A stretch of 61,612 bases of DNA from Rhodocyclaceae bacterium (lineage in GTDB: Bacteria; Pseudomonadota; Gammaproteobacteria; Burkholderiales; Rhodocyclaceae): contig JAUXOM010000084.1 of NCBI GenBank assembly GCA_030682175.1, positions 1-61,612 on the forward strand, read 5' to 3'. The notes below the pieces were generated by a model that was not told where the DNA came from, searched no databases, and was given only the letters and a program-made list of their open reading frames with translations. Numbering within the stretch: position 1 is the stretch's first letter; each line of letters starts with the position of its first letter. The translations under genes were made by a program, and so were the position numbers. Below, piece after piece: positions 98 through 59,114 of this stretch.

Positions 98-328
98 CTT
101 CTCGCCGCCGGGCCGCCCCAAGGCGAGGCGATACGCGGCGAAGCCGCAATCCGCGCCCAAATACGAACGGGGGCTCCCCGTAACAGACGAGCGCAGCGAC
201 AACAAGCGACACAGTCGCGCCGTTGCGGCGTAGGCTAATGCCGGCAAAGCCGGCGTTAAGCCGCGTAGCGGCGGCCGTAGGCAAAAACACAGTCACCTCC
301 CCGCGAGGGGAGGCTGGGAGGGGCGGGC
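98..328 (-). repeat. Family C repeat, copy C1, 3' of folB
   Basis: Read on the minus strand this element starts directly at the folB stop codon (TAG followed by GCCCGCCC). It runs through a terminator-like hairpin (CCTCCCC/GGGGAGG) followed by TGACTG, then a body with several short palindromes, and ends with the core hairpin at 101-127 (arms CTCGCC/GGCGAG around TTGGGGCGGCCCGGC). It is nearly identical in its central 100 bases to copy C2 in opposite orientation. The first 97 bases of the window hold no gene I can identify. Confidence 0.85.
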
Positions 329-679
329 CTATATTCTCGCTCTTTCGATCTGCACACCGACGCGCTTTACGCCGCGCGCGATGCCGACCTTGGCGATCGA
401 CACTTTCACCCACGGCGCGCGAAATTCGTCGAGCATGAGATTGATGAGGAACTCGCCCAGCGTTTCGAGCAGGTTGAAATGCCGCGCCGCGAGTTCGGCG
501 CGCACCCGCCCGATCACCACCGCGTAGTCGATGGTCTTGGCGATGTCGTCGTCCTGCGCCGCCTCGTCCGGCACGCCGAAGGTCAGCGTCAGGTCCAGGG
601 TCTGCGGCGCCGCCCGTTCGCGGTCGTAGATGCCGACATGCGCTTCGACGCGCATGTCCTCGATGAATATGAAGTCCAT
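329..679 (-). CDS. folB: Dihydroneopterin aldolase
   Basis: Folate biosynthesis enzyme that splits 7,8-dihydroneopterin to 6-hydroxymethyl-dihydropterin and glycolaldehyde in the cytoplasm. The 116-residue product has the family length, the N-terminal [12 protein letters not shown] signature and the C-terminal [20 protein letters not shown] segment that carries the conserved lysine. I start it at the ATG giving MDFIFIED; an upstream TTG would add five residues that fit the family less well. It is divergent from plsY, and almost all of the 115-base gap between them is a family B repeat. A family C repeat begins at its stop codon. Confidence 0.93.
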
Positions 680-692
680 AGTGTCGTCTCTC

Positions 693-775
693 AAGAAACA
701 CGAAGGGCCGCCCCGGGTGTTTCTTGGCCCCTTGAGGGGAGAAACGAGCGGAGCGAGGTTTTCGGGGTGGGCTCA
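693..775 (+). repeat. Family B repeat, copy B1, in the folB-plsY divergent promoter region
   Basis: An 83-base module: a 33-nt near-palindrome (arms AAGAAACAC/GTGTTTCTT around a GGGCCGCCCC-type centre), then a second palindrome GGCCCCTTGAGGGG, a short GAGCGGAGCGAG stretch and the tail TTTTCGGGGTGGGCTCA. The same order of parts occurs inside coaE and at the 5' end of the cobyric acid synthase gene. Here it fills nearly the entire space between the two divergent start codons, so any promoters for folB and plsY must lie in or overlap it. Confidence 0.85.
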
Positions 776-794
776 TTTACAATCCACGCATTCT

Positions 795-1430
795 ATGGAA
801 ACCTCTCTTCCCCTGCTCGCCTACCTCGCGCTCGGTTACCTGATCGGCTCGCTGCCGTTCGCGGTGATCGTTTCGAAGCTGTTCGGCCTGGCCGATCCGC
901 GCGGACACGGCTCGGGCAATCCCGGCGCTACCAACGTGCTCAGAACGGGCAACAAGTTCGCCGCGCTTTTAACGCTGCTGGGCGACGCCGCCAAGGGCTG
1001 GGTGGCGATGTGGCTGGTGGCAAAAGTCGGCGCTGGCGGGACGGCGCTCGCCGTGCCCGCCGCGTATATGGGTACGGCAGTTGCCTTTACCGGACTCGCC
1101 GCCTTCCTCGGTCACCTGTTCCCCGTCTTCCTGCGCTTCCGGGGCGGCAAGGGCGTCGCCACCGCCCTCGGCGTGCTGATCGGACTGGATGGCATGGTCG
1201 CCCTGATTGCGGTGCTCACCTGGGCCATTACCGCCGCCGTTTTCCGTTATTCCTCACTGGCCGCACTGGCCGCCGCCTGCGTTGCGCCGGGCGTGGCGTA
1301 TGCCCTGCATGGTCCGGATACGCTATTCCTGGTCATCGGCATCATGTGCCTGTTGCTGATCATGCGTCATCGGCCGAACATCCTGCGCCTCTTTGCCGGC
1401 ACCGAAAGTCGTATCGGCGGGAAGAAATAG
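795..1430 (+). CDS. plsY: Glycerol-3-phosphate acyltransferase PlsY
   Basis: Inner-membrane enzyme that transfers the acyl group of acyl-phosphate to glycerol-3-phosphate, the first step of phospholipid synthesis. The 211-residue protein is strongly hydrophobic with several membrane segments and carries the three family motifs: SGNPGATN near residues 40-47, [18 protein letters not shown] from about residue 106, and a C-terminal RHRPNI motif. ATG at 795 gives the usual [11 protein letters not shown]-type start. The loop between motifs 1 and 2 contains KVGAGGTA (residues 77-84), encoded by the short form of the family A repeat. The stop codon TAG runs straight into family C copy C2. Confidence 0.95.
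1023..1046 (+). repeat. Family A short module inside plsY
   Basis: This 24-base stretch matches the recurring core AAGTCGGCGCTGGCGGGACG plus its flanks. It is read in frame as KVGAGGTA in a loop of PlsY that varies in length in the family, between two membrane segments. The same bases occur at many other places in the window, several of them non-coding, so this is a repeat and not PlsY homology. Confidence 0.75.
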
Positions 1431-1790
1431 GCCCGCCCTCCCCCGGCCCCTCCCTCGCGGGAGGGGTGACTGTTTTTTGCCTACGGCCGCCGCCAAGCGG
1501 CTTAACGCCGGCTTTGCCGGCATTAGCCTACGCCGCAACGGCGCGACTACGTCGCTTGTTGTCGCTGCGCTCGTCTGTTACGGGGCGCTCCCGTACATGC
1601 ATGGGAGCGGGTTGCGGCTGGCGCCGCGTGACGTCTCGCCTTGGGGCGGCCCGGCGGCGAGACTGATGGGGTTGGCTTTCTCCCCTCGCCCCGTGCGGAA
1701 GGGGCCGGGGGAGAGGGGGAGCCATCAGAATGCCCTTATCCCGCAAGCGGGAGAAGGGCGGCCCGGCGGCAAGGCTGCTGTGGTGTTCGA
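1431..1790 (+). repeat. Family C repeat, copy C2 (longest copy), between plsY and tsaD
   Basis: The 361 bases between plsY and tsaD contain no gene. They hold the most complete family C copy. In order: GCCCGCCC at the stop codon; hairpin CCCCTCCC/GGGAGGGG followed by TGACTGTTTTTT, which looks like an intrinsic terminator; palindromes CGCCGGCTTTGCCGGC and GCCGCAACGGC; and the core hairpin at 1633-1663 (arms GTCTCGCC/GGCGAGAC). A second module follows (1666-1785, GTTGGCTTTCTCCCCTCGCC and CCCGCAAGCGGGAGAAGGG) that recurs only in copy C5b. It is an inverted copy of C1, so the two flank folB-plsY. Confidence 0.88.
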
Positions 1791-1791
1791 T

Positions 1792-2814
1792 TCAAAGTTC
1801 CTGTAGCGGCCAGCGCGGCCGCACGGCGAATCCGCCGGCGCGCTGCTGCTCCACCGCAGCGTAACCACCGGCCAACCAGCGCTGGGCAGCGGCAAATGCA
1901 ATCATCGCCCCGTTGTCGGTACATAACGCCAGCGCCGGGTAACAGACGCGCACTCCCTGACGCTTGCCGGCTTCATCCAGCCGTTGCCGCAACCGCCGGT
2001 TGGCGCCCACGCCACCGGCGACGACCAGTGTGGAAAGTCGGCGCTGGCGACACGCCGCCAGTGCCTTGGTCGCCAGCACCTCGGTGGCCGCTTCCTGAAA
2101 TTCGGCAGCCAGATCGGCCTGGTCCTGATGCGCCAGCGCAGACGCTCGTACCGCCGTCAATACGGCAGTCTTGAGGCCGGAAAAACTGAAGTTGAAATCG
2201 CCGCTGGCCAGCATCGGGCGCGGCAACTTGAAACGGCCCGCCACTCCGGCCTCGGCCAATTTTGCCAGCGCCGGTCCGCCCGGATAGCCGAGGCCGAGCA
2301 GTTGCGCCGTCTTGTCGAAGGCTTCACCGGCCGCGTCGTCGAGCGATTCGCCCATCAGCTCGTAAGCGCCCACTTGCTCAACGCACATGATCTGCGTGTG
2401 GCCGCCGGAGACCAGCAGGGCGATGAAGGGAAAGTGCGCCGGATCGTCGGCCAGCAACGGCGAAAGCAGATGGCCTTCAAGATGATGCACCGGCAGCGCC
2501 GGCACGCCGAGCGACATGGCCAGCCCTGCGCCAAAACTGGCGCCCGTCAGCAAGGCCCCGGCCAGCCCCGGCCCTGCCGTATAAGCCACCGCGCCAATGG
2601 CTTCCTTGCTGATGCCGGCCTCGGCCAGGACATGGGCGAGCAGCGGTGCCAGCCGTTTGATATGGTCGCGCGAGGCCAGCTCGGGCACCACGCCGCCATA
2701 TTCCTCGTGCATCGTCACCTGCGAATGGATGGCATGCGCCAGCAGGCCGCGCGCCGTGTCGTAGAGCGCAATCCCGGTTTCGTCGCAGGAGGTTTCGATG
2801 CCCAGCACAATCAT
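1792..2814 (-). CDS. tsaD: tRNA N6-adenosine threonylcarbamoyltransferase
   Basis: Catalytic subunit of the t6A complex, which transfers the threonylcarbamoyl group from TC-AMP to A37 of ANN-decoding tRNAs. The 340-residue protein has the ASKHA-fold start [14 protein letters not shown], the metal-binding HLEGH motif (residues 111-115), the SGGHT signature and a GGVGAN motif near the C-terminus. The open frame extends 24 codons upstream, but the ATG at 2814 gives the universal family N-terminus. It lies convergent with plsY, separated only by the family C repeat. Confidence 0.96.
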
Positions 2815-3077
2815 TTTCTTTGCATTTCCTGGCAAATAGATGCGGGGCGCCGGTGTCCAGGCGAGCACGCTCGGAAAGATTGCCACCCCGGTTGCCAGGG
2901 TGTCCCGGCATGATTTTAGCCGTTCGCCAGGAGATTCCAGCAGAAGGGAAGATTACGGTCCGGCCGCGCCATGCAAAGTAATTATTTTTCGCCGCACCAA
3001 GGGCGCGCATAATTTGTTTGCCCTGCCCGTGCCAGCGGCGCTAGGATGTCTCCCTGATCCTGTTCAGCCCGAGCACC

Positions 3078-6000
3078 GTGAACCGACTCCCGCTTTCCAG
3101 CCTGCAAGTCCGCCTGATTCTGGGCGTTACCCTGCTGGTTCTCGCCAGCCTCTGGGGCTTCGCACTGCTGCTGGAACGGCAACAAACGGCCCTGCTCAAA
3201 CAGTTGCTGAGCGAACAGCAGCGCGCGACCATCGACTATGTCGCCGCAGACATCGACCAGCGGCTGCACCGCCGCCTCGGCATCCTGGCGGAAGCCGCCA
3301 GCGTCGTCCCGCTCGAACAGCTCGACGATCCCGCCCGCCTTGAGGACATGCTGCGCGAGCGGCCGAACCTGCTCAGGCTCTTCGATGGCGGCATCATCAT
3401 CGTCAAACCCGACGGCGCGGGCGCCTTCGCCGACTATCCGCCCGTGCCGGGCCGGCGCGAGCATGGCTTCGAGCACTTCGCCGCGGTTGCCGATGTCATC
3501 CGCACCGGTCGGCCGGCGGTGGGCAAGCCCTTCATCGCGCCCCTGCTCGGCAAGCCGGTGCTTGGTTTTGCCATGCCGCTGCGCGACAAGGACGGCCGCC
3601 TGGCGGCGATACTCGCTGGCGTCAGTTCATTGCAGGCACCCGACCTGCTCGGCATCGTCAACCAGCAGCGCTATGGCAAGACCGGCGATCTCTTGGTGAT
3701 CGCTCCGCAGCACGGGATGGTGGTGATCGGCACCAATCCGGCCGACATGCTGCGCGCACTGCCGCCGCCGGGCGTGAATGTCATGGTCGACCGCTTTCGC
3801 GCCGGTGATGAGGGTTCGGGGGTCAGCATCAACCTCAAGGGCGTCGAGCAACTGGTGTCGGGGCGGCGCTTGTCGACGGTCGAAGGCTGGTTCGTCGTGG
3901 CGCGGCTGCCGACCGCGGAGGCCTTCGCGCCCATCGCGGCCTTGCGTCAGCTGGTGTTCGGCGGCGCCTTGGTGCTGTCGCTGCTGGTGGCGGCGCTGGC
4001 GACGCTGTGGGTGCGCCGCGCGCTGGCACCCTTGCAGGAGGCGACGAGGGCGCTCGACGCAATTTCCGCTGGCACGGCCCCGCTGCAAGCACTGCCGGTA
4101 GCGCGGCAGGACGAGGTCGGTCGCCTGGTGGAAAGCTTCAATCGCCTGCAGCAACGGCTGCTGCTACGCGAGACCGAGATGTCGCTGGCGCAGGAGCGCT
4201 TTGCCGTCGCCTTCCGCGCCAGCCCGATCGCCGCCTCGATCGGGCGCGCCGCCGATGGCCGGCTCATCGAGGTCAACGACAAGTGGCTGCGCGATTTCGG
4301 CTGGAGTCGGGCTGAGCTTATCGGCAAAACCGCGCTGGACATCGGCATCTGGCCGGACGCGGCGACACGCCAGGCCATGATCGAAGCGCTGCGCCGGACA
4401 GGCAGCATCTTCGATCACCTCACGCGCTGGCGGCGCAAAGACGGCATGCTGCGCGACGTCAGCATCTCCGCCGAGATCACTGAAGTGAACAGCGAGCCCT
4501 GCGTGCTGGCGTTCGCAACCGATGTGACCGAGCGGCTGCGGGTCGAGCGGGCGCTGGCCGAGAGCGAGGCGCGCAACCGCCGCATCGTCGAAACGGCCAA
4601 CGAAGGCATCTGGGTCATCGACCCGGACAGCCGCGTGAGCTTCGTGAACCAGCGCATGTCGGACATGCTGGGCTACGCTCAGGCAGAGATCCTCGGCCGG
4701 CGGGCGGAAGATTTTTTCTATGCGGAAGACCTCACCGCGCATCGCCAGCACATGGCGTTGCGCGCGAACGGCCTGGGCAGCAGCTACGAGAGACGCTTCA
4801 TGCGCCAGGACGGCAGCGAGTTATGGACGCAGGTGTCGGGTACTGCCATCATGAATCCGGATGGCAGCTTTGGCGGCGCCTTCGGCATGTTCACCGACAT
4901 CAGCCACCTCAAGGCGCAGCAGCGCCAACTCGAACACCTCGCCCACTATGACGCGCTGACCGGCATTCCCAACCGCGTGCTGCTGGCCGACCGCATGCAA
5001 CTGGCACTGGCCCAGGCGCGCCGCACCGAGCGACTGATGGCGGTCTGCTACGTCGATCTCGACGGCTTCAAGCCGATCAACGATGACTTCGGCCATGAGG
5101 CCGGCGACCGCCTGCTGGTGGAAATCGCCCAGCGCCTGCGCGAGGGCCTGCGCGGCGGCGATACCGTGGCGCGGCTGGGCGGCGACGAGTTCGTGCTGCT
5201 GCTGGGCATCGATCAACGCGAGGAGTGCGACACGGCGATGCGCCGGGTGCTCGATGCCATCGCCCGGCCGCTGACCGTGGCCGGCAGCCCGGTGACGATC
5301 TCGGCCAGCATCGGCTGACCCTCTTTCCGCTCGACGACGCCGATCCCGACACCCTGCTGCGCCATGCCGACCAGGCGATGTACGGTGCCAAGCAGGAAGG
5401 CCGCAACCGCTACCACTTATTCGATCCGCAGCGCGACCGCGCGGTGCGCGCCCACCGCCTGGCACAGGACCGCATTGCCGTGGCGCTCGCCGCAGAAGAA
5501 TTCGTGCTGCATTACCAGCCCAAGGTGAATATGCGCCAGGGCAGCGTGATCGGCGTCGAGGCGTTGATCCGCTGGCAGCATCCGCAGCGCGGCCTGCTGC
5601 CGCCGCTCGACTTCCTGCCGCTGATCGAGGACACCGACCTGATCGTGGCGGTCGGCGAATGGGTCATCGACGCCGCGCTGCGGCAGTGGCAGCTTTGGCA
5701 GGAGCAGGGCCTGGACCTGACGGTGAGCGTCAACATCGCCGCCCGCCACCTGTCGCGCGAAAACTTCGTGGCGCGCCTGGCCGAGTTGCTGCGCGCGCAT
5801 CCGGCAGTGCCGCCGCACCGCCTCGAACTGGAGGTGCTGGAGACGGCGGCGCTGGAGGACATCGGGCGCGTCGCCGCCATCATCGAGGAATGCCGCACGC
5901 TGGGCGTGTCCTTCGCCCTCGACGACTTCGGCACCGGCTATTCCTCGCTGACCTACATCAAGCGCCTGCCGGCGGAAACACTCAAGATCGACCAGTCATT

Positions 6001-6307: not shown

Positions 6308-6366
6308 GTCGAGGAAGTCGCGGCCTGTCTCCGCGACAACGCCAGCGCACCGGAAACCGATCCCCG

Positions 6367-19335: not shown

Positions 19336-19490
19336 GCCCGCCCCCCTTCGCCCCCCTCGCGGGGGGTTCTCAACGGCTCGCTACGCTCGTCTGTTACGGG
19401 GAGCCCCATTCGTGCTTGGGAGCGGATTGCGGCTGGCGCCGCGTGCCGCCTCGCCTTGGGGCGGCCCGGCGGCGAGGCTACAGGAGTGTG
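19336..19490 (+). repeat. Family C repeat, copy C3, 3' of ampG
   Basis: A short family C copy: GCCCGCCC two bases after the ampG stop, hairpin CCCCCCTCGCGGGGGG, CTCGTCTGTTACGGGGAGCC, and the core hairpin at 19448-19478 with arms GCCTCGCC/GGCGAGGC. The central palindromes of C1 and C2 are missing. The rest of the gap to corC, about 90 bases, shows nothing I can name. Confidence 0.82.
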
Positions 19491-20864: not shown

Positions 20865-20884
20865 CCCGAGACTCCGCTTAACGT

Positions 20885-21215
20885 GAAAGACACAGCGTTA
20901 GCGCAGGGCCGTCCCAAGCCAACGCGGCACGCGGCGCAGCCGCAATCCGCACACGCGCCGGAAAGAGCGCCCCGTAATACACGAGCGCCAGCGACAACAA
21001 GCGACGTAGTCGCGCAGTTGCGGTGCAGGCTAATGCCGGCAACGCCGGCGTTAAGCCGCGTAGCGGCGGCCGGAGGCAAAAACCAAAGACCCCCCGAGAG
21101 GGGGGCACAAGGCCACAGGCCGCAGGACGCTGCGCAGCAGCGGTCCCGAGCAAAGCGAGGGATGCGCCAACGGCGCACAAAGGGGGGCGGGCATATTTCA
21201 TGATCGGGGGCGCAG
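20885..21215 (-). repeat. Family C repeat, copy C4, between phoH and ybeY
   Basis: Read on the minus strand it starts about 37 bases after the phoH stop with GCCCGCCCCC. An extra module (CATCCCTCGCTTTGCTCGGG and CTGCTGCGCAGCG) follows, then hairpin CCCCCCTCTCGGGGGG followed by TCTTTGGTTTTTGCC, then palindromes CGCCGGCGTTGCCGGC. The core hairpin at 20895-20925 has arms GCGTTGGC/GCTAACGC, which pair with one G-U wobble although the sequence differs from every other copy. It fills the whole 368-base phoH-ybeY gap; no gene is present. Confidence 0.85.
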
Positions 21216-21232
21216 CCAACGCATCATGAAAG

Positions 21233-22213
21233 TCAGTTCCGGCCAACACCCGCTCCGTGGGCACTCGCCTTCTCCGCGACTTCCTTTTCATACGCCTCGA
21301 CGATGCGCGCCACCAGCGGATGACGCACCACGTCGCCGGCATCGAAATCTGTGAAAGCCAGCCCACGCACTTCGGCCAGAATGCGCCGCGCCTCGGTCAG
21401 GCCGGATTTCTGCCCCTTGGGCAAGTCCATCTGCGTGATGTCGCCGGTGATGACCGCCTTGGCGCCGATGCCGATGCGCGTCAAAAACATCTTCATTTGT
21501 TCGGGGGTGGTGTTCTGCGCCTCGTCGAGAATGATGAAAGCATGATTCAGCGTGCGCCCGCGCATGTAGGCCAGTGGTGCGACCTCGATGCTGCCCTGTT
21601 CGAACAGGCGCGTCACCTGGTCGAAGCCCATCAGGTCATAGAGCGCATCGTAAAGCGGGCGCAGGTAGGGGTCGACCTTCTGTGTCAGATCGCCCGGCAG
21701 GAAACCCAGCCGCTCGCCGGCCTCCACCGCCGGCCGGGTCAGCACGATGCGCTGGACATGGTCGCGCTCGTAGGCATCGACGGCGGCGGCAACGGCAAGG
21801 TAAGTCTTGCCGGTTCCGGCCGGACCGATGCCGAAGGTGATGTCGTGCTCCTGAATCTGGCGCAGATACTGCACCTGGTGGGGTGTGCGCCCGTGCAGGT
21901 CGGCTTTGCGCGTCAGCAGGCCGGCGGCGGGTTGCGCCACCCGCTTGTTGTTTCTCAGCTCGATCAGGCCAAGCTGAATGTCGTCGACAGACAAGGGCAC
22001 GATCGCCAGCGCGTAAAAGTGCTGCAAAGCCGCCGCCGCGAGCCGCGCCTGCGCCAGGGCGCCATCAATGCGGCAATGTTCGCCGCGGCGCGAAATCATC
22101 ACGTCGCAGGCCATCTCGATCTGGCGCAGATTTTCGTCGAGCGCGCCGCACAGGTTCGCCAGCCGGGCGTTGTCGAGCGGTTCGAGGACGACCGTGAGAC
22201 TTTTGTTTTTCAA
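21233..22213 (-). CDS. phoH: PhoH-like ATPase (YbeZ)
   Basis: About 326 residues with Walker A GPAGTGKT and the PhoH motifs RPAVEAGERLGFLPGD, ILDEAQNTTPEQMKMFLTR and TGDITQMDLP. It works with YbeY and CorC in RNA and ribosome metabolism. I place the start at the TTG at 22213 (MKNKSLTVVLEP). The frame runs on to 22291, but that extension is read through the CACAGAG-type inverted repeat and looks artificial. The true start needs testing. Confidence 0.92.
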   Translation of the reverse strand: MKNKSLTVVLEPLDNARLANLCGALDENLRQIEMACDVMISRRGEHCRIDGALAQARLAAAALQHFYALAIVPLSVDDIQLGLIELRNNKRVAQPAAGLLTRKADLHGRTPHQVQYLRQIQEHDITFGIGPAGTGKTYLAVAAAVDAYERDHVQRIVLTRPAVEAGERLGFLPGDLTQKVDPYLRPLYDALYDLMGFDQVTRLFEQGSIEVAPLAYMRGRTLNHAFIILDEAQNTTPEQMKMFLTRIGIGAKAVITGDITQMDLPKGQKSGLTEARRILAEVRGLAFTDFDAGDVVRHPLVARIVEAYEKEVAEKASAHGAGVGRN

Positions 22214-24072: not shown

Positions 24073-24798
24073 ATGAAACTCAATTCCCGATTCACCCTCC
24101 TCAGCGGCCTGGCCGCACTTTTTTTGTCCCAGGCCGTGTTCGCCAGCGAGGCACAGGTCAAGAAGGGGGTTGAGGCCTTTCTGGGCAGCAATGGACCCAA
24201 GGTGGAGTCCGTGCGCAAAGCCGGCGCTCTGGGGCTTTACGAGGTGATGGTCGACGGCGAGCTGATCTACACCGACGAAAAGGTCACGCATCTCATTCTC
24301 GGCCAAATTATTGAAGCCCAGTCGCGCAAGAATCTCACCGAAGAGCGCAAGCAAAAGCTTTCGCAGATCAAGTTTTCCGACCTGCCGCTCGACATGGCCA
24401 TCAAACAGGTCAAGGGCAACGGCAAGCGCCTGTTGGCGACCTTCGAGGACCCCAATTGTTCCTACTGCAAGAAGCTGGCACAGGAGCTGCAAGGCTTGAA
24501 CAACGTCACGATCTACACCTTCGTCTACCCGATCCTGTCGCCGGATTCAAACGAAAAAGCCAAGAACATCTGGTGCGCCAGCGACCGCGTCAAGGCATGG
24601 AACGATTTCATGATCAACAACCAGGCGCCGGCCAGCAAGAATTGCAATCACCCCACCGAGAAGGTGGTTGCCCTGGGCCGCAAACTCAACATTCGCGGCA
24701 CGCCAACGATGTTCTTCGCTGACGGCAGTCGCGTGCCCGGCTACATGCCAGTGGCGACGCTGGAAAAGGCGCTCGACAAGGGCAGCGCTGAAAAATAG
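24073..24798 (+). CDS. dsbC: Thiol:disulfide interchange protein DsbC
   Basis: Periplasmic disulfide isomerase of 241 residues. Signal peptide at residues 1-24 (hydrophobic run ending VFASEA), an N-terminal dimerisation domain, then a thioredoxin fold with the active site C129-S-Y-C132 and the cis-proline in RGTPTMFF. Start ATG 24073 after a GGAG-like site. Its stop codon is followed within about 10 bases by family C copy C5a. Confidence 0.95.
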   Translation: MKLNSRFTLLSGLAALFLSQAVFASEAQVKKGVEAFLGSNGPKVESVRKAGALGLYEVMVDGELIYTDEKVTHLILGQIIEAQSRKNLTEERKQKLSQIKFSDLPLDMAIKQVKGNGKRLLATFEDPNCSYCKKLAQELQGLNNVTIYTFVYPILSPDSNEKAKNIWCASDRVKAWNDFMINNQAPASKNCNHPTEKVVALGRKLNIRGTPTMFFADGSRVPGYMPVATLEKALDKGSAEK

Positions 24799-25300
24799 CC
24801 AATTACGACCCACCCCCTCCCGACCTCCCCCTCGCGGGGGAGGTGACTGTTGCTCGCTGCGCTCGACTATCACGGGGAGCTTTGTTCTTGCATTTGTGCG
24901 GTTTGCGGCTGTCGCCGCGTATCGTCCCGGCTTGGGGCGGCCCTGCGCCGGGACTGCGGTGTGGCTGTCTTGTATTTTGAGTCGCGCTTGTAGAAAGTCG
25001 GCGCTGGCGAGACGGCGTTAAATCCGCCCCCGTCGCAGCCTTGCCGCCGGGCCGCCCTTCTCCCGCTTTGCGGGTGAAGGGCATTCTGTTGGCTCCCCCT
25101 CTCCCCCGTCCCCTCTCCCGCAAGGGGCGAGGGGAGAAAGCCAACCCCAGCAGTCTCGCCGCCGGGCCGCCCCAAGGCGAGACGGCACGCGCCGCCAGGC
25201 GCAATCCGCTCCCAAGTATGAACAGGGGGCTCCCCGTGATAGTCGAGCACAGCGAGCAACAGTCACCCCCTTCCAAGGAAGGGGGCTGGGGGGAAGGTTT
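24799..25300. repeat. Family C repeats C5a and C5b as an inverted pair, plus a family A module
   Basis: The 502 bases between dsbC and the convergent diguanylate cyclase gene hold no gene. C5a (about 24806-24960, plus) follows dsbC, with hairpin CCTCCCCC/GGGGGAGG, TGACTGTTGCTCGC and the core hairpin at 24924-24954 (arms GTCCCGGC/GCCGGGAC). C5b (about 25026-25298, minus) follows the cyclase gene, with hairpin CCCCCTTCC/GGAAGGGGG, TGACTGTTGCTCGC and the core hairpin at 25153-25183 (arms GTCTCGCC/GGCGAGAC), then the extra module shared with C2. Between them lies a short family A module at 24993-25017. Confidence 0.87.
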
Positions 25301-27283: not shown

Positions 27284-28576
27284 TTACGGCGTATGGCCGC
27301 GCGGCAGCAGCACCCACATCATGCCGCGCTGCTTCATCTTGCCGGCCAGATTGCCGGCAGCGGTCCCGCTGCCCCAGTAAAAATCCGCGCGCACCGCGCC
27401 ACGGATGGCGCCGCCGGTGTCCTGCGCCAGCATCAGGCGCTTGAGTGCCTGTTCGCTGTTGGGTTGCGTGGTGGCGAGCCAGACCGGTGCACCCAGCGGA
27501 ACATGGCGCGGATCGACGGCAATCGAGCGTTCCGGCGTGAGCGGCACGCCGAGCGCACCGGGCGGCCCGCTGCCCGTCGCTGGCAATTCGCGGAAAAACA
27601 CCATGCTCGGATTGACGTTCAGCAGCTCATTGAGGCGACGCGGATTGGCCACCGCCCAGGCCTTGATGCCCTGCATCGAGGCCTCGTGGGCGCGCAGCTC
27701 GTTCTGGTCGATCAGCCAGCGACCGATCGAACGGTAGGGGTGGCCATTCTGGTCGGCGTAACCGATGCGCACGCGGCTGCCATCGTCGAGCGCCACCTGG
27801 CCCGAGCCCTGGATCTGCAGGAAGAAAAAGTCGAGCGGATCATCCGCCCACAGCAGGGCAGCATCGGCCCGCAGAATTTCCTGCGCATTCCAGTCGGCGC
27901 GATCAAGGTAGGGCACCAGCTTGCGGCCTTCGATGCGGCCACGCAGGCGCAGGTGTTTCAGCTCCGGATAGAGCGCATCGAGTTCAACCACGATCAGATC
28001 GTCCGGCGGGGCGAACACCGGCGTCAGGTAGGGCGCTTTTTTTGTGCGGCTGCCGCGGATCAGAGGCTCGTAATAACCGGTAACCAGGCCAGTCCGGCCG
28101 CCGTCCGGCTGGGTGAGCGCCCAGGGCTGGAATTGGCCCTCGAACCAGGCCCGCGCCGTCTCGCCAGCGCCGACTTTATTGGCCCCCCGCGCTCGCAAAC
28201 CCTGCTCGCTGCCCCCCCCAGGGGGAACATCGGCTTGGGGCGGCCCGGCGCCGATGTTTGCTTGCAGTGCCGACTCGCAGCTCGCACGCCAGAGCGGGCG
28301 CTTGGCTAGCGTTGCGCAGGATGCACGGAAGGCCTCGAAAGCCGGCAGCGGGTCATCACTCAGCCAGTCGGGCAGGTCGCTCCAGGCGGCGGGCTGCAGG
28401 GGCCTGACTTCGGGCTTGGCGGGCTCGACGCCCGGACAAACCGGGCAGGCGGCGCAGGGCGGGCAGGTCGTTGCGGTAGTGGCGATGGGCGCAGGTAACG
28501 GCGCGGGCAGGGCGGCACAGCCGGCCAGCATCACTGCCGCCAGGAAAGTCGCAAGGAATGTTGAAAACGTGGCCAT
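27284..28576 (-). CDS. mltA: Membrane-bound lytic murein transglycosylase A, with in-frame repeat insertion
   Basis: Outer-membrane lipoprotein that cleaves peptidoglycan to 1,6-anhydro ends. 430 residues from ATG 28576; the lipobox is LAGC with C20. The MltA domain (GLVTGYYEPLIRGSR, FFLQIQGSGQV) and the C-terminal 3D domain with its catalytic Asp (LAQDTGGAIRGAVRADFYWG) are intact. Residues about 106-140, between CESALQ and ARAWFEGQF, are encoded by a long family A repeat ([18 protein letters not shown]). The family normally has only a short linker there. The linker joins the N-terminal helix to the first MltA strand, so the enzyme is likely still active. Confidence 0.92.
   Translation of the reverse strand: MATFSTFLATFLAAVMLAGCAALPAPLPAPIATTATTCPPCAACPVCPGVEPAKPEVRPLQPAAWSDLPDWLSDDPLPAFEAFRASCATLAKRPLWRASCESALQANIGAGPPQADVPPGGGSEQGLRARGANKVGAGETARAWFEGQFQPWALTQPDGGRTGLVTGYYEPLIRGSRTKKAPYLTPVFAPPDDLIVVELDALYPELKHLRLRGRIEGRKLVPYLDRADWNAQEILRADAALLWADDPLDFFFLQIQGSGQVALDDGSRVRIGYADQNGHPYRSIGRWLIDQNELRAHEASMQGIKAWAVANPRRLNELLNVNPSMVFFRELPATGSGPPGALGVPLTPERSIAVDPRHVPLGAPVWLATTQPNSEQALKRLMLAQDTGGAIRGAVRADFYWGSGTAAGNLAGKMKQRGMMWVLLPRGHTP
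28154..28259 (-). repeat. Family A long module inside mltA
   Basis: About 105 bases (35 codons) read in frame in mltA. Read on the plus strand it contains the short module GCCGTCTCGCCAGCGCCGAC, then GGCCCCCCGCGCTCGCAA, a C-run/G-run hairpin, and the core hairpin at 28226-28258 with the longest arms of any copy, AACATCGGC/GCCGATGTT. These arms differ from the birA copies yet remain fully complementary. Confidence 0.85.
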
Positions 28577-35031: not shown

Positions 35032-36038
35032 GCCGCACTCCGCAGCGACACCTCGCCGGACAGCACCCGCTCGATCTGACCGGACACTTCCAGCAGCAAC
35101 GCGCCATCGACATCCACGCCGCGACAGATGCCCATGCGCGGCGGCGCAAAATCCGCGAGCAGCCGGATCGGTTCGTCCGCGAAGGCATGGCGCGCCATCC
35201 AGGCGCTGCGCAGGTCGGCAAACCCGCTCGCCGCAAAACTTTCCAGCACCGCCAGCAACTCGACGAGGATTCCGGCCAGCAATTCGTTGGGGTCGCCACC
35301 ATGGTCCAGCGCCGCGCTTTGCGCCCGCAGATCGTCCGGCAGTGCGGCCGGCAGGCGTAAATTCAGGCCGATGCCGATCACGGCCACATGCGGTGCGCCA
35401 GACAACAACTCGACGAGGATGCCGCCCAGCTTGCGCCCGCCGAGCAGCAGATCGTTCGGCCATTTGAGTTGAATCGCCTCTCCAGAATTATTCTGCGTGC
35501 CGACCGACGCCGTCCCGCCAGCGCCGACTTTGTTGGCCCCCCACGCTCGCAATCCAGGCTCGCTGCCCCCCATGAAATCACCCGAAGCGGTGACGGGGGG
35601 GCTAGCGTCGGCTTGGGACGGCCCGGCGCCGACTTTGTTGGCCCCCCACGCTCGCAACCCCGGCTCGCTGCCCCCCACGGGGGGGCTGGCGTCGGCTTGG
35701 GACGGCCCGGCGCCGACTTTCTCCAGCGCCTCCGCCACCGCCAAGCCAACGGCCAGTGACAACCCGGCCGGCAAGGTACCCGGGGCGAAGCGCCAAAGCA
35801 GGGAAAAGGTCAGGCTGTCACCCGGGGCGGAAATCCACGCCCGGCCGCGCCGGCCGCGCCCGGCCGTCTGCGCCGCGGCGACGACCACCGCACCCGAGGG
35901 TGCGCCAGCCGCAGCGCGGGCAAGCAATACGCCATTCGTCGAAGCGCACTCGTTCAGCAGGTCGGCATCGAAGCGGCAAGCGTAATCGCCCAGGGCAAGC
36001 GATAACCCGGAAAGATTTAGCGAGAAGTCGGCTGACAT
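35028..36038 (-). CDS. birA: Biotin-[acetyl-CoA-carboxylase] ligase, with tandem in-frame repeat insertion
   Basis: Attaches biotin to the carboxylase carrier protein. 336 residues, against about 260-270 for related enzymes without an HTH domain. The biotinyl-AMP loop GRGRRGRAW and the KWPNDLLL motif are both intact, with the normal ECASTN start of the catalytic domain. Between them, residues about 107-176 are encoded by two tandem family A long modules, giving [18 protein letters not shown] twice. The insertion point (after AEALE, before QLKWPND) is a surface loop in the family, so activity is probably kept. No N-terminal DNA-binding domain. Start ATG 36038. Confidence 0.92.
   Translation of the reverse strand: MSADFSLNLSGLSLALGDYACRFDADLLNECASTNGVLLARAAAGAPSGAVVVAAAQTAGRGRRGRAWISAPGDSLTFSLLWRFAPGTLPAGLSLAVGLAVAEALEKVGAGPSQADASPPVGGSEPGLRAWGANKVGAGPSQADASPPVTASGDFMGGSEPGLRAWGANKVGAGGTASVGTQNNSGEAIQLKWPNDLLLGGRKLGGILVELLSGAPHVAVIGIGLNLRLPAALPDDLRAQSAALDHGGDPNELLAGILVELLAVLESFAASGFADLRSAWMARHAFADEPIRLLADFAPPRMGICRGVDVDGALLLEVSGQIERVLSGEVSLRSAA
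35508..35720 (-). repeat. Family A long module, tandem duplication inside birA
   Basis: A short module (35508-35531) opens the array. Unit 1 is 35521-35625 (105 bases) and unit 2 is 35626-35709 (84 bases), followed by a partial third start GCGCCGACTTT. The 21-base difference is an extra stretch in unit 1 that contains TCACCCGAAGCGGTGA, itself a small hairpin. Both lengths are multiples of three. Core hairpins lie at 35607-35633 and 35691-35717, with arms GTCGGC/GCCGAC. Confidence 0.88.
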
Positions 36039-36235: not shown

Positions 36236-36312
36236 TGGTGGGCCCGCTCGGACTTGAACCGAGGACCAAAGGATTATGAGTCCTCTGCTCTAACCAACTG
36301 AGCTACAGGCCC
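36236..36312 (-). tRNA. tRNA with CAU anticodon, probably tRNA-Ile2
   Basis: 77 bases including encoded CCA. Full cloverleaf: acceptor GGGCCTG/CGGGCCC (one G-U), D-arm GCTC/GAGC, anticodon arm GAGGA/TCCTT with loop CTCATAA, T-arm CTCGG/CCGAG. CAU anticodons belong to Met or to Ile2 with lysidine. Acceptor pairs C4-G69 and C5-G68, known determinants for TilS, favour tRNA-Ile2; it is not an initiator because G1-C72 is paired. It lies 41 bases after rpoD, as in related genomes. Confidence 0.93.
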
Positions 36313-48673: not shown

Positions 48674-48680
48674 ACCTTGC

Positions 48681-48866
48681 TGGGTTCCCCGCTTGTGCCG
48701 TTAGAGCCGGCATCCTGAACCTTGGTTCAGATGGGTCACGTTCCTGCCGCTTCAGGTGCACTCGACGTGGAGTGCTCACAACAGCGGCGTCCATGGGCGG
48801 CGACCGATGCAAATGCGTATTGGTTCAAGGAATGTATGGCCTTGACGAACACCGCAGGGAATTCCG
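48681..48866 (-). ncRNA. ssrS: 6S RNA
   Basis: About 185 bases downstream of zapA, its standard place. The closing stem pairs TTCCCTGC (48861-48854) with GCGGGGAA (48692-48685). Recognisable 6S elements follow: GTGTTCGTCAAGGCC, CCTTGAACCAATA on the 5' side of the central bubble, and TGAACCAAGGTTCAGG on the 3' side, which match the E. coli 6S motif TTGAACCAAGGGTTCAAGG. 6S RNA binds sigma70 RNA polymerase in stationary phase. The ends are estimates. Confidence 0.88.
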
Positions 48867-49266: not shown

Positions 49267-49269
49267 TCT

Positions 49270-49360
49270 GCCTCCGCCGGACCGCCCCAAGGAGGCTCAG
49301 TTACCAAATGAGGCCCCCCTGTGGGGGGCGGCGAGCTGAATTTGCGAGCGTGGGGGGCCA
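49270..49360 (-). repeat. Family A long module between the ZapB-like gene and zapA
   Basis: Read on the minus strand it begins TGGCCCCCCACGCTCGCAAA right at the stop codon of the ZapB-like gene, passes a GGCGGCGAGC/C-run hairpin, and ends in the core hairpin GCCTCC-TTGGGGCGGTCCGGC-GGAGGC (49296-49270). The arms here are different from all other copies but fully complementary, and one arm is the zapA Shine-Dalgarno. Confidence 0.85.
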
Positions 49361-49667: not shown

Positions 49668-49701
49668 AAAGTCGGCGCTGGTGGAACGGCGCGCCTATAA
49701 T
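49668..49701 (+). promoter_or_regulatory. Family A short module overlapping the presumed btuB promoter
   Basis: The short module (49668-49690, AAAGTCGGCGCTGGTGGAAC and onward) is followed at once by TATAAT (49696-49701). The -35 position would lie within the repeat and has no TTGACA. The start point would be near 49708, about 35 bases before the riboswitch. Promoter status is inferred. Confidence 0.55.
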
Positions 49702-49740
49702 TCGACCGCTTTGTCCGTGGTGTCTGTCGGGTCATTTTTC

Positions 49741-49897
49741 TGGCCCACAGGTGAAACGGGAATGAGGTGAGCTTAATCGGCAAACCCTCGGCTGCCCCCG
49801 CAACGGTAAGGAAGTGCGGCTGCTCCAATCGAGCCACTGGGAGAAATCCCGGGAAGGCGGAGCAGCAAAACTTCCGAGCCCGGAGACCGGCCTCGGA
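49741..49897 (+). promoter_or_regulatory. Cobalamin riboswitch
   Basis: Conserved features in order: GTGAAACGGGAA near the 5' end, the core GCCCCCGCAACGGTAAGG (49793-49810), CACTGGGAGAAATCCCGGGAAGG, and the B12 box AGCCCGGAGACCGGCC (49877-49892). It lies 116 bases upstream of the btuB start codon, so adenosylcobalamin should shut off the receptor and likely the whole transport operon. The expression platform was not resolved. Confidence 0.95.
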
Positions 49898-50012
49898 CAA
49901 TCCAAACTTGCGCTGCGGGGGGCGGCGCGCCGGGGTTTTCCGTCGCGACTCTCCCTGGACGCTTTCCGTTACCACGGCCTGCGGGGACGCTGGCCGCTCT
50001 GGGAGTCAAGAC

Positions 50013-51947: not shown

Positions 51948-51951
51948 TCCC

Positions 51952-53708: not shown

Positions 53709-53711
53709 ACC

Positions 53712-54721: not shown

Positions 54722-54733
54722 TCGGTCAGGCGA

Positions 54734-55159: not shown

Positions 55160-55404
55160 CAGTAGCGCGCTCCGCGCCGCAGCTCATCCATCACCGATGT
55201 CCCCAGCGGCATGGCGGCCCGCGCCTCGGCCAGTTCCTGCGCGAAGGATTTCCTGTCCCACCGGGCCGGACGAATGGCCAGCCCGCCATCGGCCGTCAAG
55301 CTGGTCTCCACGCTGTCGCCTTCCTTGATGCCCAGGCTGCGCACCACCTCGGCGGGAATGCGCAGGGCCAGGCTGTTGCCCCATCGGGCGATATGCAGGT
55401 TCAT
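55159..55404 (-). CDS. vapB: VapB-type AbrB/MazE antitoxin
   Basis: 81 residues: SpoVT/AbrB-fold DNA-binding start (ARWGNSLALRIPAEVVRSLG), then a toxin-binding C-terminal tail. It normally represses its own promoter, which should lie in 55405-55470; the run TTGATCTACATTGATGTAGATAC contains the palindrome ATCTACATTGATGTAGAT, a likely operator. Confidence 0.9.
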   Translation of the reverse strand: MNLHIARWGNSLALRIPAEVVRSLGIKEGDSVETSLTADGGLAIRPARWDRKSFAQELAEARAAMPLGTSVMDELRRGARY

Positions 55405-55419
55405 GGCGTTACCCCTGTT

Positions 55420-55437
55420 GATCTACATTGATGTAGA
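55420..55437. promoter_or_regulatory. Probable VapB operator
   Basis: Perfect 18-base palindrome-type site ATCTACATTGATGTAGAT (arms ATCTACAT/ATGTAGAT) just upstream of vapB. AbrB-type antitoxins bind such sites to repress their own operon. Assigned by position. Confidence 0.72.
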
Positions 55438-55501
55438 TACATTCTAGCCGCTCGTTCACCGCGCGCAAGCTCGACTTCCCTAAAAAGAGAGCACGGGGGC
55501 G

Positions 55502-55579
55502 CTACCCTGTTATTGGCCGACCAGTCTTCCATCTCCAAGAACTTCTTGTTCCAGCCAGAATCCAGGGCGGAGGGTTCAT
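55502..55579 (-). pseudogene. Duplicated btuF 5' end (right direct repeat 55554-55579)
   Basis: ATG at 55579 gives [10 protein letters not shown], copying the first nine codons of btuF, then 16 unrelated codons and a stop near 55502. The ATGA overlap with the stop of the decarboxylase gene looks like an original cobC-btuF junction. So this is the old btuF start, cut off when the vapBC segment entered. Confidence 0.75.
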
Positions 55580-56517
55580 GCAATCTCCTTCAGGCAAGCG
55601 GTCAGCCGTTGCCATTGCTCCGCGCTTTCCGGCAGCCCGAAACGCAATGCCCGTGGCTCGGTGAACGCGCGCACGAGGATGCCCTGCCGGGCGAGCGCCG
55701 CGAAAATTTCGGCGGCGCGCGGCGTGGCGATGGTTTGGAACAATGTGCAGCCGGTCGGCGCACCGAGACCCGACGCACGGAGCAGAGCGGTGAGACGCCG
55801 GCTGGCGGCACACAGGCGCTCGCGTTGCGCGGCCTGCCAGGCGCAATCGGCCAGCGCCAGACACGCGGCCCAGCGGGCGGGATGGCTGACGGCCCAGGGG
55901 CCGAGCGCTTCGCGCAACCGGTCCAGCAGTGCCGGCGCGCCAATGGCGCAACCAACGCGTGCGCCGGCGAGGCCGAAGAACTTGCCGAGCGAACGCAATA
56001 CGACGACATTGTCCAGGCCGCAATCCGCAAGCGACGCCAGCGGCTCGGCGTCGATGAAGGCTTCGTCCACGACCAGCAGCTTCACCCCGCGCGCGCGTTC
56101 GAGCAAGGCGGCGCGGGAGTGTGTTGCGCCGGTCGGGTTGTTCGGGTTGCAGAGCACGACGTAGTCCGCCGGCTCGTTCCAGCCGACGAGCGCATGGCCG
56201 CAGGCCTGCCAGGCGGCGGGATGTTCGTTGTAGAGCAAATCCGGCATGGCGACGCGGCCCGGCGGGAACAGGCGCGGCAGCCACTGGATCGCGGCTTGCG
56301 AACCGGGCAGCATGAGGAGGCGCGCGCAGCCGTAATACGTCTGCGCGGCGGCTTCGAGACCATCCTCTTCCTCGGGCAGGCGCTGCCAGACTGCGGTCGG
56401 CGTCCGCGGCAGCGGGTAGGACCAGGGCGCGATGCCGGTCGACAGGTCGAGCCAGTCGGCGCGCGGGATGCCGTAGCGCCGCGCTGCCTCCCCAAGCCGG
56501 CCGCCATGCTCAAGCAC
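55576..56517 (-). CDS. cobC: L-threonine-O-3-phosphate decarboxylase (CobC/CobD type)
   Basis: PLP aminotransferase-fold enzyme that makes the aminopropanol phosphate arm of cobalamin. 313 residues from GTG 56517. [29 protein letters not shown] is the family start, CNPNNPTGA binds PLP, and the lysine lies in [14 protein letters not shown]. Named cobC in aerobic-pathway and cobD in Salmonella nomenclature. Eight-base overlap with cbiB upstream. Next in line was btuF before the vapBC event. Confidence 0.9.
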
Positions 56518-57436
56518 GGGCGAAGCTCCACAGAACGAACAGCGCGAGCCACAACCATTGTCCGCGTACGACCAGCGTCACGGCGCGCGGAATGTCGGCG
56601 GCGCACGGCGCCGGTCCGCGGCCCAGGGCCGGCCGTTGCTCGTCCCGGCCGTGATAGATCGCCGTCCCGCCAACGCCGACTTTCAGCGCACCCGCGCCCG
56701 CGGCCATCACCGGACCGGCGTTCGGGCTGCTCCACGCACTGGCCTGCGCCCGCCAGCAGGCGAGGGCGTTTTGCGTGTTGCCCAAGAGCGCGTAGGTCAG
56801 CGCGGTGAGCCGTGCCGGAACATAGTTCAGCACGTCGTCGAGGCGCGCCGCCGCCCAGCCGAAATGGATGCGGCGCGCATCCTTGTAGCCCCACATCGCG
56901 TCGAGGGTGTTGGCCAGCCGGTAGAGCACGGCGCCGGCGCCGCCCGCGACGAAGAACCAGAACAGCGCGCCGAATACGGCGTCGTTGCCGTTTTCCAGCA
57001 CCGACTCGACGGTGGCCGTCGCCACGCCGGACGCGTCGAGCTGCGTAGTGTCGCGCGAGACAATGCGGCCGACCGCCGTGCGTGCCATTTCCAGGTTGGC
57101 GAGATCGCCCGCCGCCAGCGGCGTGGCGACGGCCCGCGCATGCTCGCCGAGGCTGCGGCCGCCCAGCGCCAGCCAGAGCAGCAGCGCGTCGAGCAGTGGA
57201 TGGGCAAACCAGGCCGCCAGCAAGACGCAGGGCACGACGATGACGCTCCATGCCGCGAGGCCGCGCAGCCGATTGCCGATGGCATGCCCCGGCGCGCCCG
57301 CCCGGAATACGCGCTCGGCGGCATCCGCCAGCCTGCCGAAGCCGACCAGCGGATGCCAGCGGCGCGGCTCGCCCAGCAGGCAGTCGAGCAGCACGCCGAC
57401 AAGTGCGGACGCGGCCGGGAACGGCAGAGGGGGCAT
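56510..57436 (-). CDS. cbiB: Adenosylcobinamide-phosphate synthase CbiB
   Basis: Inner-membrane enzyme joining the aminopropanol arm to adenosylcobyric acid. 308 residues with four or five membrane segments; [34 protein letters not shown] and [21 protein letters not shown] are family motifs. ATG 57436. The sequence KVGVGGTA (bases 56667-56690) matches the family A short module, but also fits the natural GALxxxLGGxAxYxG motif. Divergent from cobyric acid synthase. Confidence 0.9.
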
Positions 57437-57473
57437 GGGATAATTCGCGGATGAAAACACAGCGATTCTACCG

Positions 57474-59114
57474 GTGACGACAAGGGCAACTTTCAAGAAA
57501 CACGCCGGGGCGCCCCAAGTGTTTCTTGGCCCCCTGGGGGGAGAAAGTCGCGTAGCGGCTTTTTCGGGGGGGGCCTTAATGGTGCAAGGCTGCACCTCCG
57601 ACGCCGGCAAGAGCACGCTGGTCGCGGCGCTGTGCCGCATCCTGCACCGGCGGGGCGTGCGCGTCGCTCCGTTCAAGCCCCAGAACATGGCGCTCAACTC
57701 GGCCGTCACCGTGGATGGCGGCGAGATCGGCCGCGCCCAGGCGCTGCAGGCGCAGGCCGCCGGGCTGGCGCCGCGCATCGACTTCAATCCCGTGCTGCTC
57801 AAGCCCAACACCGACAAGCGCGCGCAAGTCATCATCCACGGCAAGGCCATCGCCGACCTGGATGCGCGCGCCTACCACGACTACAAGGCCACCGCGATGG
57901 CGGCGGTGCTCGAATCGTGGGCGCGGCTCACGGCCGAATTCGACTGCGTGATCGTCGAAGGCGCGGGCAGCCCGGCCGAGGTCAATCTGCGTGACCGCGA
58001 CATCGCCAACATGGGCTTCGCCGAGGCCGTCGACATCCCGGTGATCCTCATCGGCGACATCGACCGCGGCGGCGTGCTCGCCCATCTTTCCGGCACGCTC
58101 GACCTGCTGTCGCCCTCCGAACGGGCGCGCACGCAGGGCCTCGTCATCAACCGCTTTCGCGGCGACATCGGCCTCTTGCAGCCCGGTCTCGACTGGCTCG
58201 AAAAGCACACCGGCAAGCCGGTGCTGGGCACGCTGCCCTTCCTGCACGGTTTGTTCCTCGATGCCGAGGACGCGCTCGCCCATCATTCCGAACGCGGCGG
58301 CAAAACGAAACTCGTCGTCGCGGCGCCGGTGTTCCCGCGCATCTCGAACGCCAACGACCTCGACCCGCTGCGCCTGCACCCCGAGATCGACTTCCGCTGG
58401 ATCGGCCCCGGCCAGCCGCTGCCGCCGTGCGACCTGATCGTGCTGCCCGGCTCGAAGTCGGTGCAGGCCGATCTGAAGTGGCTGCGCGCGCAGGGGCATG
58501 AGGCGGCGATCCTGCGCCACCTGCGTTACGGCGGCAAGCTCATCGGCCTGTGCGGCGGCTTTCAGATGCTCGGCCGGGCGCTGCACGATCCGCTAGGTAT
58601 CGAAGGTCAAGGCGGCCCGGGGCTGGGGCTGCTCGATTGCGAAACGACGCTGGGAGCGGAAAAGCAGTTGAGGAACGTCAGTGGCTGGCTGAAAGTCGGC
58701 GCAGGGCCGTCCCAAGCCGACATCCCCCCTGTGGGGGGCAGCGAGCCGCCTTTGCGAGCGCGGGGGGCCAACAAAGTCGGCGCTGGCGGGACGGCGGACG
58801 CGTGCATGCAAGGCTACGAAATCCACATGGGCGTGACGCGCGGCCCGGCGCTGGATCGGCCCGCCGTCGTGCTGGATGACGGGCGCACCGACGGTGCGAT
58901 TTCTGACGACAACCAGATCCTCGGCAGCTATTGCCACGGCCTGTTCGACCATCCGCAGGCCTTCGCCGCCCTGCTTGCCTGGGCCGGCGCGAAGGACATC
59001 GCCACCGTGGACCTCGCCGCGCGGCGCGAAGCCGACCTCGACCGGCTGGCCGATGCGACCGAGGCCGCGCTGGGCGAAAGTCATTTGCGCGAGCTGCTGC
59101 CGCTCTCCGGATGA
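57474..59114 (+). CDS. cobQ: Cobyric acid synthase, with repeat-encoded leader and internal insertion
   Basis: Amidates peripheral carboxyls of adenosylcobyrinic acid a,c-diamide. Domains: an ATP-binding synthetase half ([35 protein letters not shown]) and a class I amidotransferase half ([10 protein letters not shown] with the Cys nucleophile, SYCHGLFDH with the His). GTG 57474 gives a 35-residue leader encoded by family B; ATG 57579 gives a core that starts [10 protein letters not shown], slightly short of the usual length. Residues about 407-441 come from a family A long module ([18 protein letters not shown]) just before YEIHMG. Both additions are in frame. Usual length is about 485-500; this frame gives 546. 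Confidence 0.9.
57495..57576 (+). repeat. Family B repeat, copy B3, between cbiB and cobyric acid synthase
   Basis: Same parts as B1 and B2: arms AAGAAACAC/GTGTTTCTT around GGGGCGCCCC, then GGCCCCCTGGGGGG, GTCGCGTAGCGGC and TTTTTCGGGGGGGGCCT. It fills most of the space between the cbiB start (57436) and the first internal ATG of the synthase (57579). It is in frame with that gene and has no stop codon. Confidence 0.84.
58690..58796 (+). repeat. Family A long module inside cobQ
   Basis: Core hairpin at 58695-58721 (arms GTCGGC/GCCGAC, minus-strand loop TTGGGACGGCCCTGC), C-run/G-run hairpin ATCCCCCCTGTGGGGGGCA, GCGAGCGCGGGGGGCCAACA, and a short module at 58773-58796. In frame; same peptide as in birA and mltA. 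Confidence 0.86.

What the first reader, a model, noticed from the sequence alone, without database searches (positions are those of the whole stretch)
101..58721. A hairpin with fixed 15-nt core and covarying arms recurs 11 times
Seen directly: core TTGGGRCGGYCCKGC at 101-127, 1633-1663, 19448-19478, 20895-20925, 24924-24954, 25153-25183, 28226-28258, 35607-35633, 35691-35717, 49270-49296 and 58695-58721. The arms differ (for example GTCTCGCC/GGCGAGAC, GCCTCGCC/GGCGAGGC, GTCCCGGC/GCCGGGAC, AACATCGGC/GCCGATGTT, GCCTCC/GGAGGC, GCGTTGGC/GCTAACGC with one G-U), yet remain complementary. Compensatory change at so many sites means the folded form, in RNA or single-stranded DNA, is or was under selection, while the loop is held by sequence. 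It resembles REP/BIME-type elements in principle, but I know of no described family with this core.
Basis: seen in the sequence. Interest (0 to 1): 0.9.

Follow-up and report, generated by a model that had tools for sequence, protein, structure and literature searches.

The report
Mobile hairpin repeats with site-copied arms
The hairpins are the ends of short mobile DNA repeats, scattered in the hundreds through this bacterium and probably of a little-studied kind first seen in Bordetella, and their matching arms look copied from the DNA at the landing site rather than kept matching because an RNA must fold.

Summary
All 11 cores are exact and the arms pair; I add a 12th site at 57504 (one mismatch) and 256 exact copies in the genome, reversed pattern 0. 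The core ends short mobile inserts: relatives carry empty sites and copy number runs from 0 to 256 within one family. The Bordetella form, in 74-78 bp tandem units, matches BRE, a repeat described in 2011 without mechanism.

Over 308 copies the arms pair, but G-T makes up 22% of the mismatched cells against 20% shuffled (range 18-22%) and is about as common as A-C (64, 57), so selection on an RNA strand is hardly visible. In the clearest case the 3' arm is host sequence inside a 13-bp target duplication, the 5' arm is its inverted copy, and 11 relatives lack the insert. I favour inverted copying in DNA during or after insertion.

Three window inserts lie in frame inside birA, mltA and a cobQ-like gene. 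REP tags and flanking RAYT genes were not found. No mobilising enzyme was found.

The parts
99..129 (-). hairpin, family I, arms pair over 6 bp; behind folB
1633..1663 (+). hairpin, family I, 8-bp arms; 210 nt behind the plsY-type stop codon
19448..19478 (+). hairpin, family I, 8-bp arms; 122 nt behind a transporter stop codon
19330..19575 (+). insert carrying the hairpin at 19456; absent from G208 and G209
20895..20925 (-). hairpin, family I, arms with one G-T; between phoH and ybeY
20874..21234 (-). insert between phoH and ybeY carrying the hairpin at 20903; absent from G201, G209, G211
24924..24954 (+). hairpin, family I, 8-bp arms; 133 nt behind dsbC-type stop codon
25153..25183 (-). hairpin, family I, 8-bp arms; 125 nt behind a GGDEF gene
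24789..25300 (.). region with two inverted family I copies; the G208 site lacks both
28226..28258 (+). hairpin, family III, 9-bp arms, antisense inside mltA
28168..28248 (+). 81-bp in-frame insert in mltA between two copies of a GCGCCGA-type target
35607..35633 (+). hairpin, family III, 6-bp arms, antisense inside birA
35691..35717 (+). hairpin, family III, second tandem copy inside birA
35521..35709 (+). 189-bp in-frame insert (two tandem units, 105 and 84 bp) in birA; G201 and G208 have GCGCCGACTTT once and no insert
49270..49296 (-). hairpin, family III; the 3' arm GGAGGC looks like the Shine-Dalgarno of zapA, ATG 9 nt behind the core
57494..57528 (-). 12th hairpin, family II type, core with one mismatch, 10-bp arms
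58695..58721 (-). hairpin, family III, 6-bp arms, antisense inside a cobQ-like gene
58692..58772 (-). 81-bp in-frame stretch in the cobQ-like gene between two copies of the AAAGTCGGCGC target
   Evidence: no empty site was looked for here

Best explanation
The hairpins are the conserved right-hand ends of short non-autonomous mobile repeats, probably of the BRE class. Shown: the core lies near one end of inserts that relatives lack; in several family III insertions a short host target is duplicated, the 3' arm lies in that duplicate and the 5' arm is its inverted complement (target - body - inverted target - core - target). Inferred: the small self-pairing core (TTGGG/CCCGG around four bases) folds back in single-stranded DNA during insertion or later replication, and DNA synthesis switches template across it, copying one arm from the other. 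Each site so gets matching arms of its own, almost free of G-T, and two-sided changes need no selection on an RNA. Inserts survive where genes stay whole: between stop and start codons, in 3' untranslated regions, or in frame inside genes. Unknown: the enzyme that moves the element, and why family I is nearly always in sense orientation.
For: Empty sites at five window places and at further sites against G201. G201 insertion with a perfect 13-bp duplication GAGAGGCTAATAA and 5' arm GCCTCTC; 11 relatives lack the insert; that arm is found at 1 of 157 own and G201 copies, itself. Own insertion with GACATGA twice where G201 has it once, 5' arm with CATGTC. birA: GCGCCGACTTT once in relatives. For 20 family III sites outside the KVG motif, flank-to-arm similarity beats all 300 shuffles (5.62; 4.65, sd 0.29, max 5.55). 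G-T not clearly favoured and about equal to A-C. In eight own/G201 pairs the 8-bp arms differ at nine positions on both sides and at one on one side. Template switching is reported to create and maintain perfect stems (PMC8794818, passages).
Against: A broader test finds a single-site p of 0.05 or less at only 10 of 81 non-family-I sites, family II shows no clear duplication (16 sites, 4.78; 4.21, max 5.12), and family IV had too few sites to test. In family I the arms lie inside the insert. In G201 alone the G-T share is 0.28 (13 of 47), above its shuffled range. Two of the eight site pairs may be confounded by an inversion. Arms in f49 genomes pair less well (6.30 of 8; shuffled 4.75) and arrays L355 and L364 do not pair simply. 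In Bordetella no clear target duplication was seen by eye. Sense orientation of family I in 33 of 35 hints at transcription.
Confidence: 0.6

Rival explanations
1. Selection on a folded RNA: the hairpin acts in the mRNA (3' end stability, ribosome release, or hiding a Shine-Dalgarno) and its arms are kept paired by compensatory mutation.
For: Strong covariation; family I in sense orientation behind stop codons, 33 of 35, at clustered distances; GGAGG-type arms 6-12 nt before ATG at nine of 73 sites; G-T share above shuffles in G201 alone.
Against: Pooled G-T 0.22 of mismatched cells, shuffled 0.20, and about equal to A-C; copy number 0 to 256 in one family; antisense copies inside genes; target-matched arms.
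Confidence: 0.15
2. Guide pairing: the element's 5' arm recognises the target by base pairing before insertion, so 3' arm and 5' arm match because only matching targets are used (as guides do in IS200/IS605 elements, recalled).
For: Layout arm - hairpin - target; many copies share an arm and a target, such as GTCGGC and the KVG motif.
Against: In G201 the arm GCCTCTC exists at one of 157 copies, so no source with this guide is in the part seen (about a third of G201); duplications of 7-13 bp are not made by IS200/IS605 elements (recalled); Y1 transposases absent from 6 of 12 copy-rich genomes.
Confidence: 0.12
3. Terminators: the repeats spread as transcription terminators or end up completing them.
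For: Family I lies behind stop codons; at L325, L326, L330, L336, L342 and L343 of 20 Bordetella loci the 3' arm runs into an A-tract beside a terminator-like hairpin (by eye).
Against: Most own hairpins have no T-run behind them; copies inside genes and between same-strand genes.
Confidence: 0.05
4. REP/BIME elements moved by a RAYT transposase.
For: High-copy intergenic palindromes; Y1_Tnp genes exist in the own genome (3).
Against: No GTAG or CGTC tag: GTAG/CTAC near the stem at 6 and CGTC/GACG at 13 of 308 copies; Y1_Tnp absent from 6 of 12 copy-rich genomes; 1 of 12 Y1 loci has a core in reach, on one side only.
Confidence: 0.03

Closest known systems
BRE, Beta-proteobacterial repeat element (Hot et al. 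2011, PMC3110155; passages and section 14 seen)
   Same: Bordetella and Comamonadaceae hosts, 75-91 bp units, tandem arrays with variable number, mostly intergenic but some inside genes, high GC, presumed mobile.
   Different: The text read gives no hairpin, target duplication or arm rule; counts there reach 29 in a genome, here 256 cores; its letters stand in a figure and supplement that could not be read.
Rickettsia palindromic elements, RPE (passages of the review PMC10969869)
   Same: Short palindromic repeats inserted in frame inside unrelated genes.
   Different: Other phylum class; about 150 bp; sequence not compared here.
REP/BIME elements with RAYT (PMC3733652, passages)
   Same: High-copy short stem-loops with complementary changes in the stems.
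   Different: No GTAG or CGTC tag, no flanking RAYT; there G-T pairs in stems are reported as often seen, here they are not clearly favoured.
Template-switch (quasipalindrome) mutation (PMC8794818, passages)
   Same: Makes and repairs perfect inverted repeats across a short loop in one event.
   Different: In the passages seen it concerns RNA genes, not the ends of a mobile repeat.

Membership tests
BRE | units of 75-91 bp, in tandem arrays | tested here: met
   26 tandem units in Bordetella genomosp. 5: 74-78 bp, median 76; arrays of 2-5 there; 84 and 105 bp in the window
BRE | occurs in Bordetella and Comamonadaceae | tested here: met
   core in 9 of 15 named genomes: six of nine Bordetella, two of two Achromobacter, one Acidovorax; not in Roseateles, Collimonas, Herbaspirillum or three Bordetella
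BRE | high GC, 69.0% (63.7-78.9%) | tested here: met
   71.8% mean, 64.5-82.9% in 26 units
BRE | intergenic, some inside coding sequences | tested here: met
BRE | known locus beside lexA (B. pertussis group) | tested here: inconclusive
   0 of 80 lexA loci has a core; B. pertussis itself was not among the 80
BRE | published sequence | not testable with these tools
REP/RAYT | GTAG or CGTC tag at the stem | tested here: not met
   6 and 13 of 308 copies
REP/RAYT | RAYT gene flanked by the repeat | tested here: not met
   0 of 12 Y1 loci flanked on both sides, 1 with one core; no Y1 in 6 of 12 copy-rich genomes
MITE | target-site duplication | tested here: met
   for family III; family II not clear
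MITE | terminal inverted repeats shared with an autonomous transposon | not tested
   no transposon other than Y1_Tnp was sought
Rickettsia palindromic elements | in-frame insertion inside genes | tested here: met
   14 of 14 KVG-site copies with spacing divisible by 3, 11 of them in frames open over more than 200 codons
Rickettsia palindromic elements | sequence relation to RPE | not tested
   no RPE sequence was fetched
known structured RNA | match to an Rfam family | tested here: not met
   no match at the hairpins at gathering score; none up to E 1 in four element loci

The most novel reading that the evidence does not exclude
The insertion reaction itself writes the arms: a mobile element whose conserved fold-back end copies about 6-9 bases of each new target into an inverted repeat beside it, so that every copy carries a hairpin tailored to its own site (target - body - inverted target - core - target). 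I know of no described element with this product (recall; no search of the literature for this layout was made beyond).
Probability: 0.3. Interest if true: 0.85.

Novelty: new variant of a known kind. Interest (0 to 1): 0.6.

Why it matters
Covariation in stems is the standard sign of a working RNA fold. This family shows strong covariation together with features that point to copying in DNA (G-T not clearly favoured, arms equal to host target), so it is a warning case for covariation screens and a natural test bed for template switching. If the arms are written at insertion, the insertion product is of a new kind. The work also gives the bare BRE repeat of 2011 an anatomy, a target pattern and a wider host range, and adds a Burkholderiales case of short mobile DNA that persists inside housekeeping genes by lying in frame.

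Tried and rejected
REP/RAYT: rejected on tag and on Y1 loci. Rfam: three window matches at gathering score (cobalamin riboswitch, tRNA, 6S), none at the hairpins; none up to E 1 on four element loci. 'The 3' arm is always host sequence': rejected for family I, where the arms lie inside the insert, and not supported for family II. lexA adjacency as a proof of BRE: 0 of 80 loci. A first test of the KVG motif printed nothing and was rewritten. An earlier count said that at L083 2626 the KVG motif replaces native sequence of the same length; one search shows a 9-base difference there, so only W 56661 and G201 C25a 196953 are of equal length. Literature: Comamonadaceae with REP and hairpin, 0 papers; BRE phrase, 1 paper; core strings, 0 papers; a broad set of terms, 3 unrelated papers in the listing. 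A covariance model was not built, since exact core plus arm counts answered the question. Family labels come from regular expressions: 35 I, 16 III, 8 IV, 1 II, 18 unassigned of 78 own sites; 82 I, 35 III, 19 II, 3 IV, 24 unassigned of 163 own and G201 sites under other rules. Genes are from a home-made hexamer caller. The output was cut in the middle.
Full report
Observation. The 11 cores are exact and at the stated places; with 2 mismatches allowed the window has 13 matches against a shuffled mean of 2.48. A 12th hairpin with one core mismatch lies at 57504-57518. On the 12 aligned sites pairing and covariation score exceed all 500 shuffles and every slid version; the number of pairs with two-sided changes (7) is reached by 9 of 500. 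The genome holds 256 exact cores (138 forward, 118 reverse) and none of the reversed pattern.

Distribution. In the family draw 119 of 199 genomes have an exact core, with counts up to 152 outside the own genome; five members of the genus in that draw have 9, 7, 0, 14 and 0 beside 256. In the order a 16-base version occurs in 53 of 399 genomes, patchily. In the class draw 5 of 274 match: the own genome, two of the same order, and 2 of the 271 others with one match each; single matches of the reversed control also occur there.

Anatomy. The core sits near the right end of longer inserts. Four loose families differ in body and arms. Family III, seen also in Bordetella and in f49 genomes, reads GCCCCC(A)CGCT - variable hairpin - GCTGCCCCCC - GGGGG - arm - core - arm. 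Family I has a longer body and its own arms, 20 distinct 8-mers in 76 copies. Pooled, the arms pair well over about 8 positions and fall to near the shuffled level at position 9, in own (76 copies), G201 (81), Bordetella genomosp. 5 (42) and others (79); in f49 (30) pairing is weaker, 6.30 of 8 against 4.75 shuffled. Families II and III taken alone pair on at position 9 (0.83 and 0.65).

Where it sits. Of 35 family I copies in the fetched part of the own genome 33 have the upstream gene on the same strand, 2 on the other. A same-strand stop codon within 420 nt was found for 44 of 73 sites of all families; family I distances cluster at 81-87 (4), 122-133 (16) and 195-214 nt (7), with one at 315. 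At nine of the 73 sites an ATG follows the core after 6-12 nt. In the window, inserts lie antisense and in frame in birA (189 bp, two units), mltA (81) and a cobQ-like gene (81). At 14 own and G201 copies in the KVG motif the copy-to-copy distance is 81, 84, 96 or 105, each divisible by 3, and 11 of the 14 lie in frames open over more than 200 codons; the cases are related, so this is not 14 independent events.

Insertion and target copies. Empty sites are seen at five window places and at further sites against G201. The cleanest case lies in G201 at a conserved gene end: GAGAGGCTAATAA, body, GCCTCTC, core, GAGAGGCTAATAACATG. Eleven relatives, own included, lack the element and carry the related site; one of them, G207, seems to have the target twice without element. 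The arm GCCTCTC is found at 1 of 157 own and G201 copies, this one. At an own insertion G201 has GACATGA once and the filled site twice, with CATGTC in the 5' arm; G207 shares this insertion. In birA the relatives have GCGCCGACTTT once. For 20 family III sites outside the KVG motif the flank-to-arm similarity exceeds all 300 shuffles (5.62; 4.65, sd 0.29, max 5.55); for 16 family II sites it does not (4.78; 4.21, max 5.12). A looser test over 81 non-family-I sites gives p of 0.05 or less at 10 single sites. So the target copy is well shown in a few insertions and in family III as a group, not at each site.

RNA or DNA? Over arm positions 2-8 of 308 copies there are 1867 Watson-Crick, 64 G-T and 225 other cells of 2156. 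G-T makes up 0.22 of the mismatched cells, shuffled 0.20 (range 0.18-0.22), and G-T (64) is about as common as A-C (57), its counterpart on the other strand. In single sets the share is 0.22 (own), 0.28 (G201, above its range 0.17-0.25), 0.40 (Bordetella, shuffled 0.40), 0.23 (f49) and 0.17 (others). Selection on one RNA strand should favour G-U over A-C; here that is hardly seen. In eight own/G201 pairs the 8-bp arms differ at nine positions on both sides and at one on one side; two pairs may be confounded by an inversion. This fits copying of one arm from the other in DNA, a process known to create and maintain perfect stems (PMC8794818, passages). What a DNA-only view does not explain is the sense orientation of family I.

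Known relatives. BRE (PMC3110155; passages and section 14) agrees in hosts, unit length, tandem arrays, places and GC content (69.0% there, 71.8% here). In named genomes the core is found in 9 of 15, six of the nine Bordetella among them. BRE letters could not be compared and no lexA locus of 80 carries a core, so membership is likely, not proved. REP/RAYT membership fails. Rickettsia palindromic elements work alike as to in-frame insertion (PMC10969869, passages).

Verdict. A real and abundant family of mobile repeats, probably the BRE class, with arms matched to the site. Whether arms are written at insertion or corrected later is open, and the enzyme is unknown.

Noticed in passing
window 1023, 16757, 29359, 49668, 53775, 56669 and elsewhere, both strands: A second high-copy motif, AAAGTCGGCGCTGGCG(G/A)GACGGCG: 192 exact 21-mers in the own genome, 0 to 260 in 19 genus members, reversed control 0. 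It lies in coding sequence in several frames and between genes; at W 56661 and G201 C25a 196953 it stands where the other genome has unrelated sequence of the same length, as an uptake-type motif would. Family III elements insert into it.
   Followed up: partly
L307 (G207), site aligned: The target of the G201 insertion seems doubled in G207 without any element, possibly an excision trace.
   Followed up: no
own genome, for example L084 6510 and L075 12485: A further short repeat, TGCCCCGCAGCGGGTA (13 copies in 449 kb), often nested inside the KVG motif.
   Followed up: no
window 48682-48863 (-), 49701-49909 (+), 36239-36312 (-): 6S RNA, a cobalamin riboswitch ahead of a TonB-dependent receptor gene, and a tRNA.
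   Followed up: no
L325, L326, L330, L336, L342, L343 (Bordetella genomosp. 5): The last 3' arm of the array runs into an A-tract beside a terminator-like hairpin, as if the element had landed in a terminator of the other strand (by eye).
   Followed up: no
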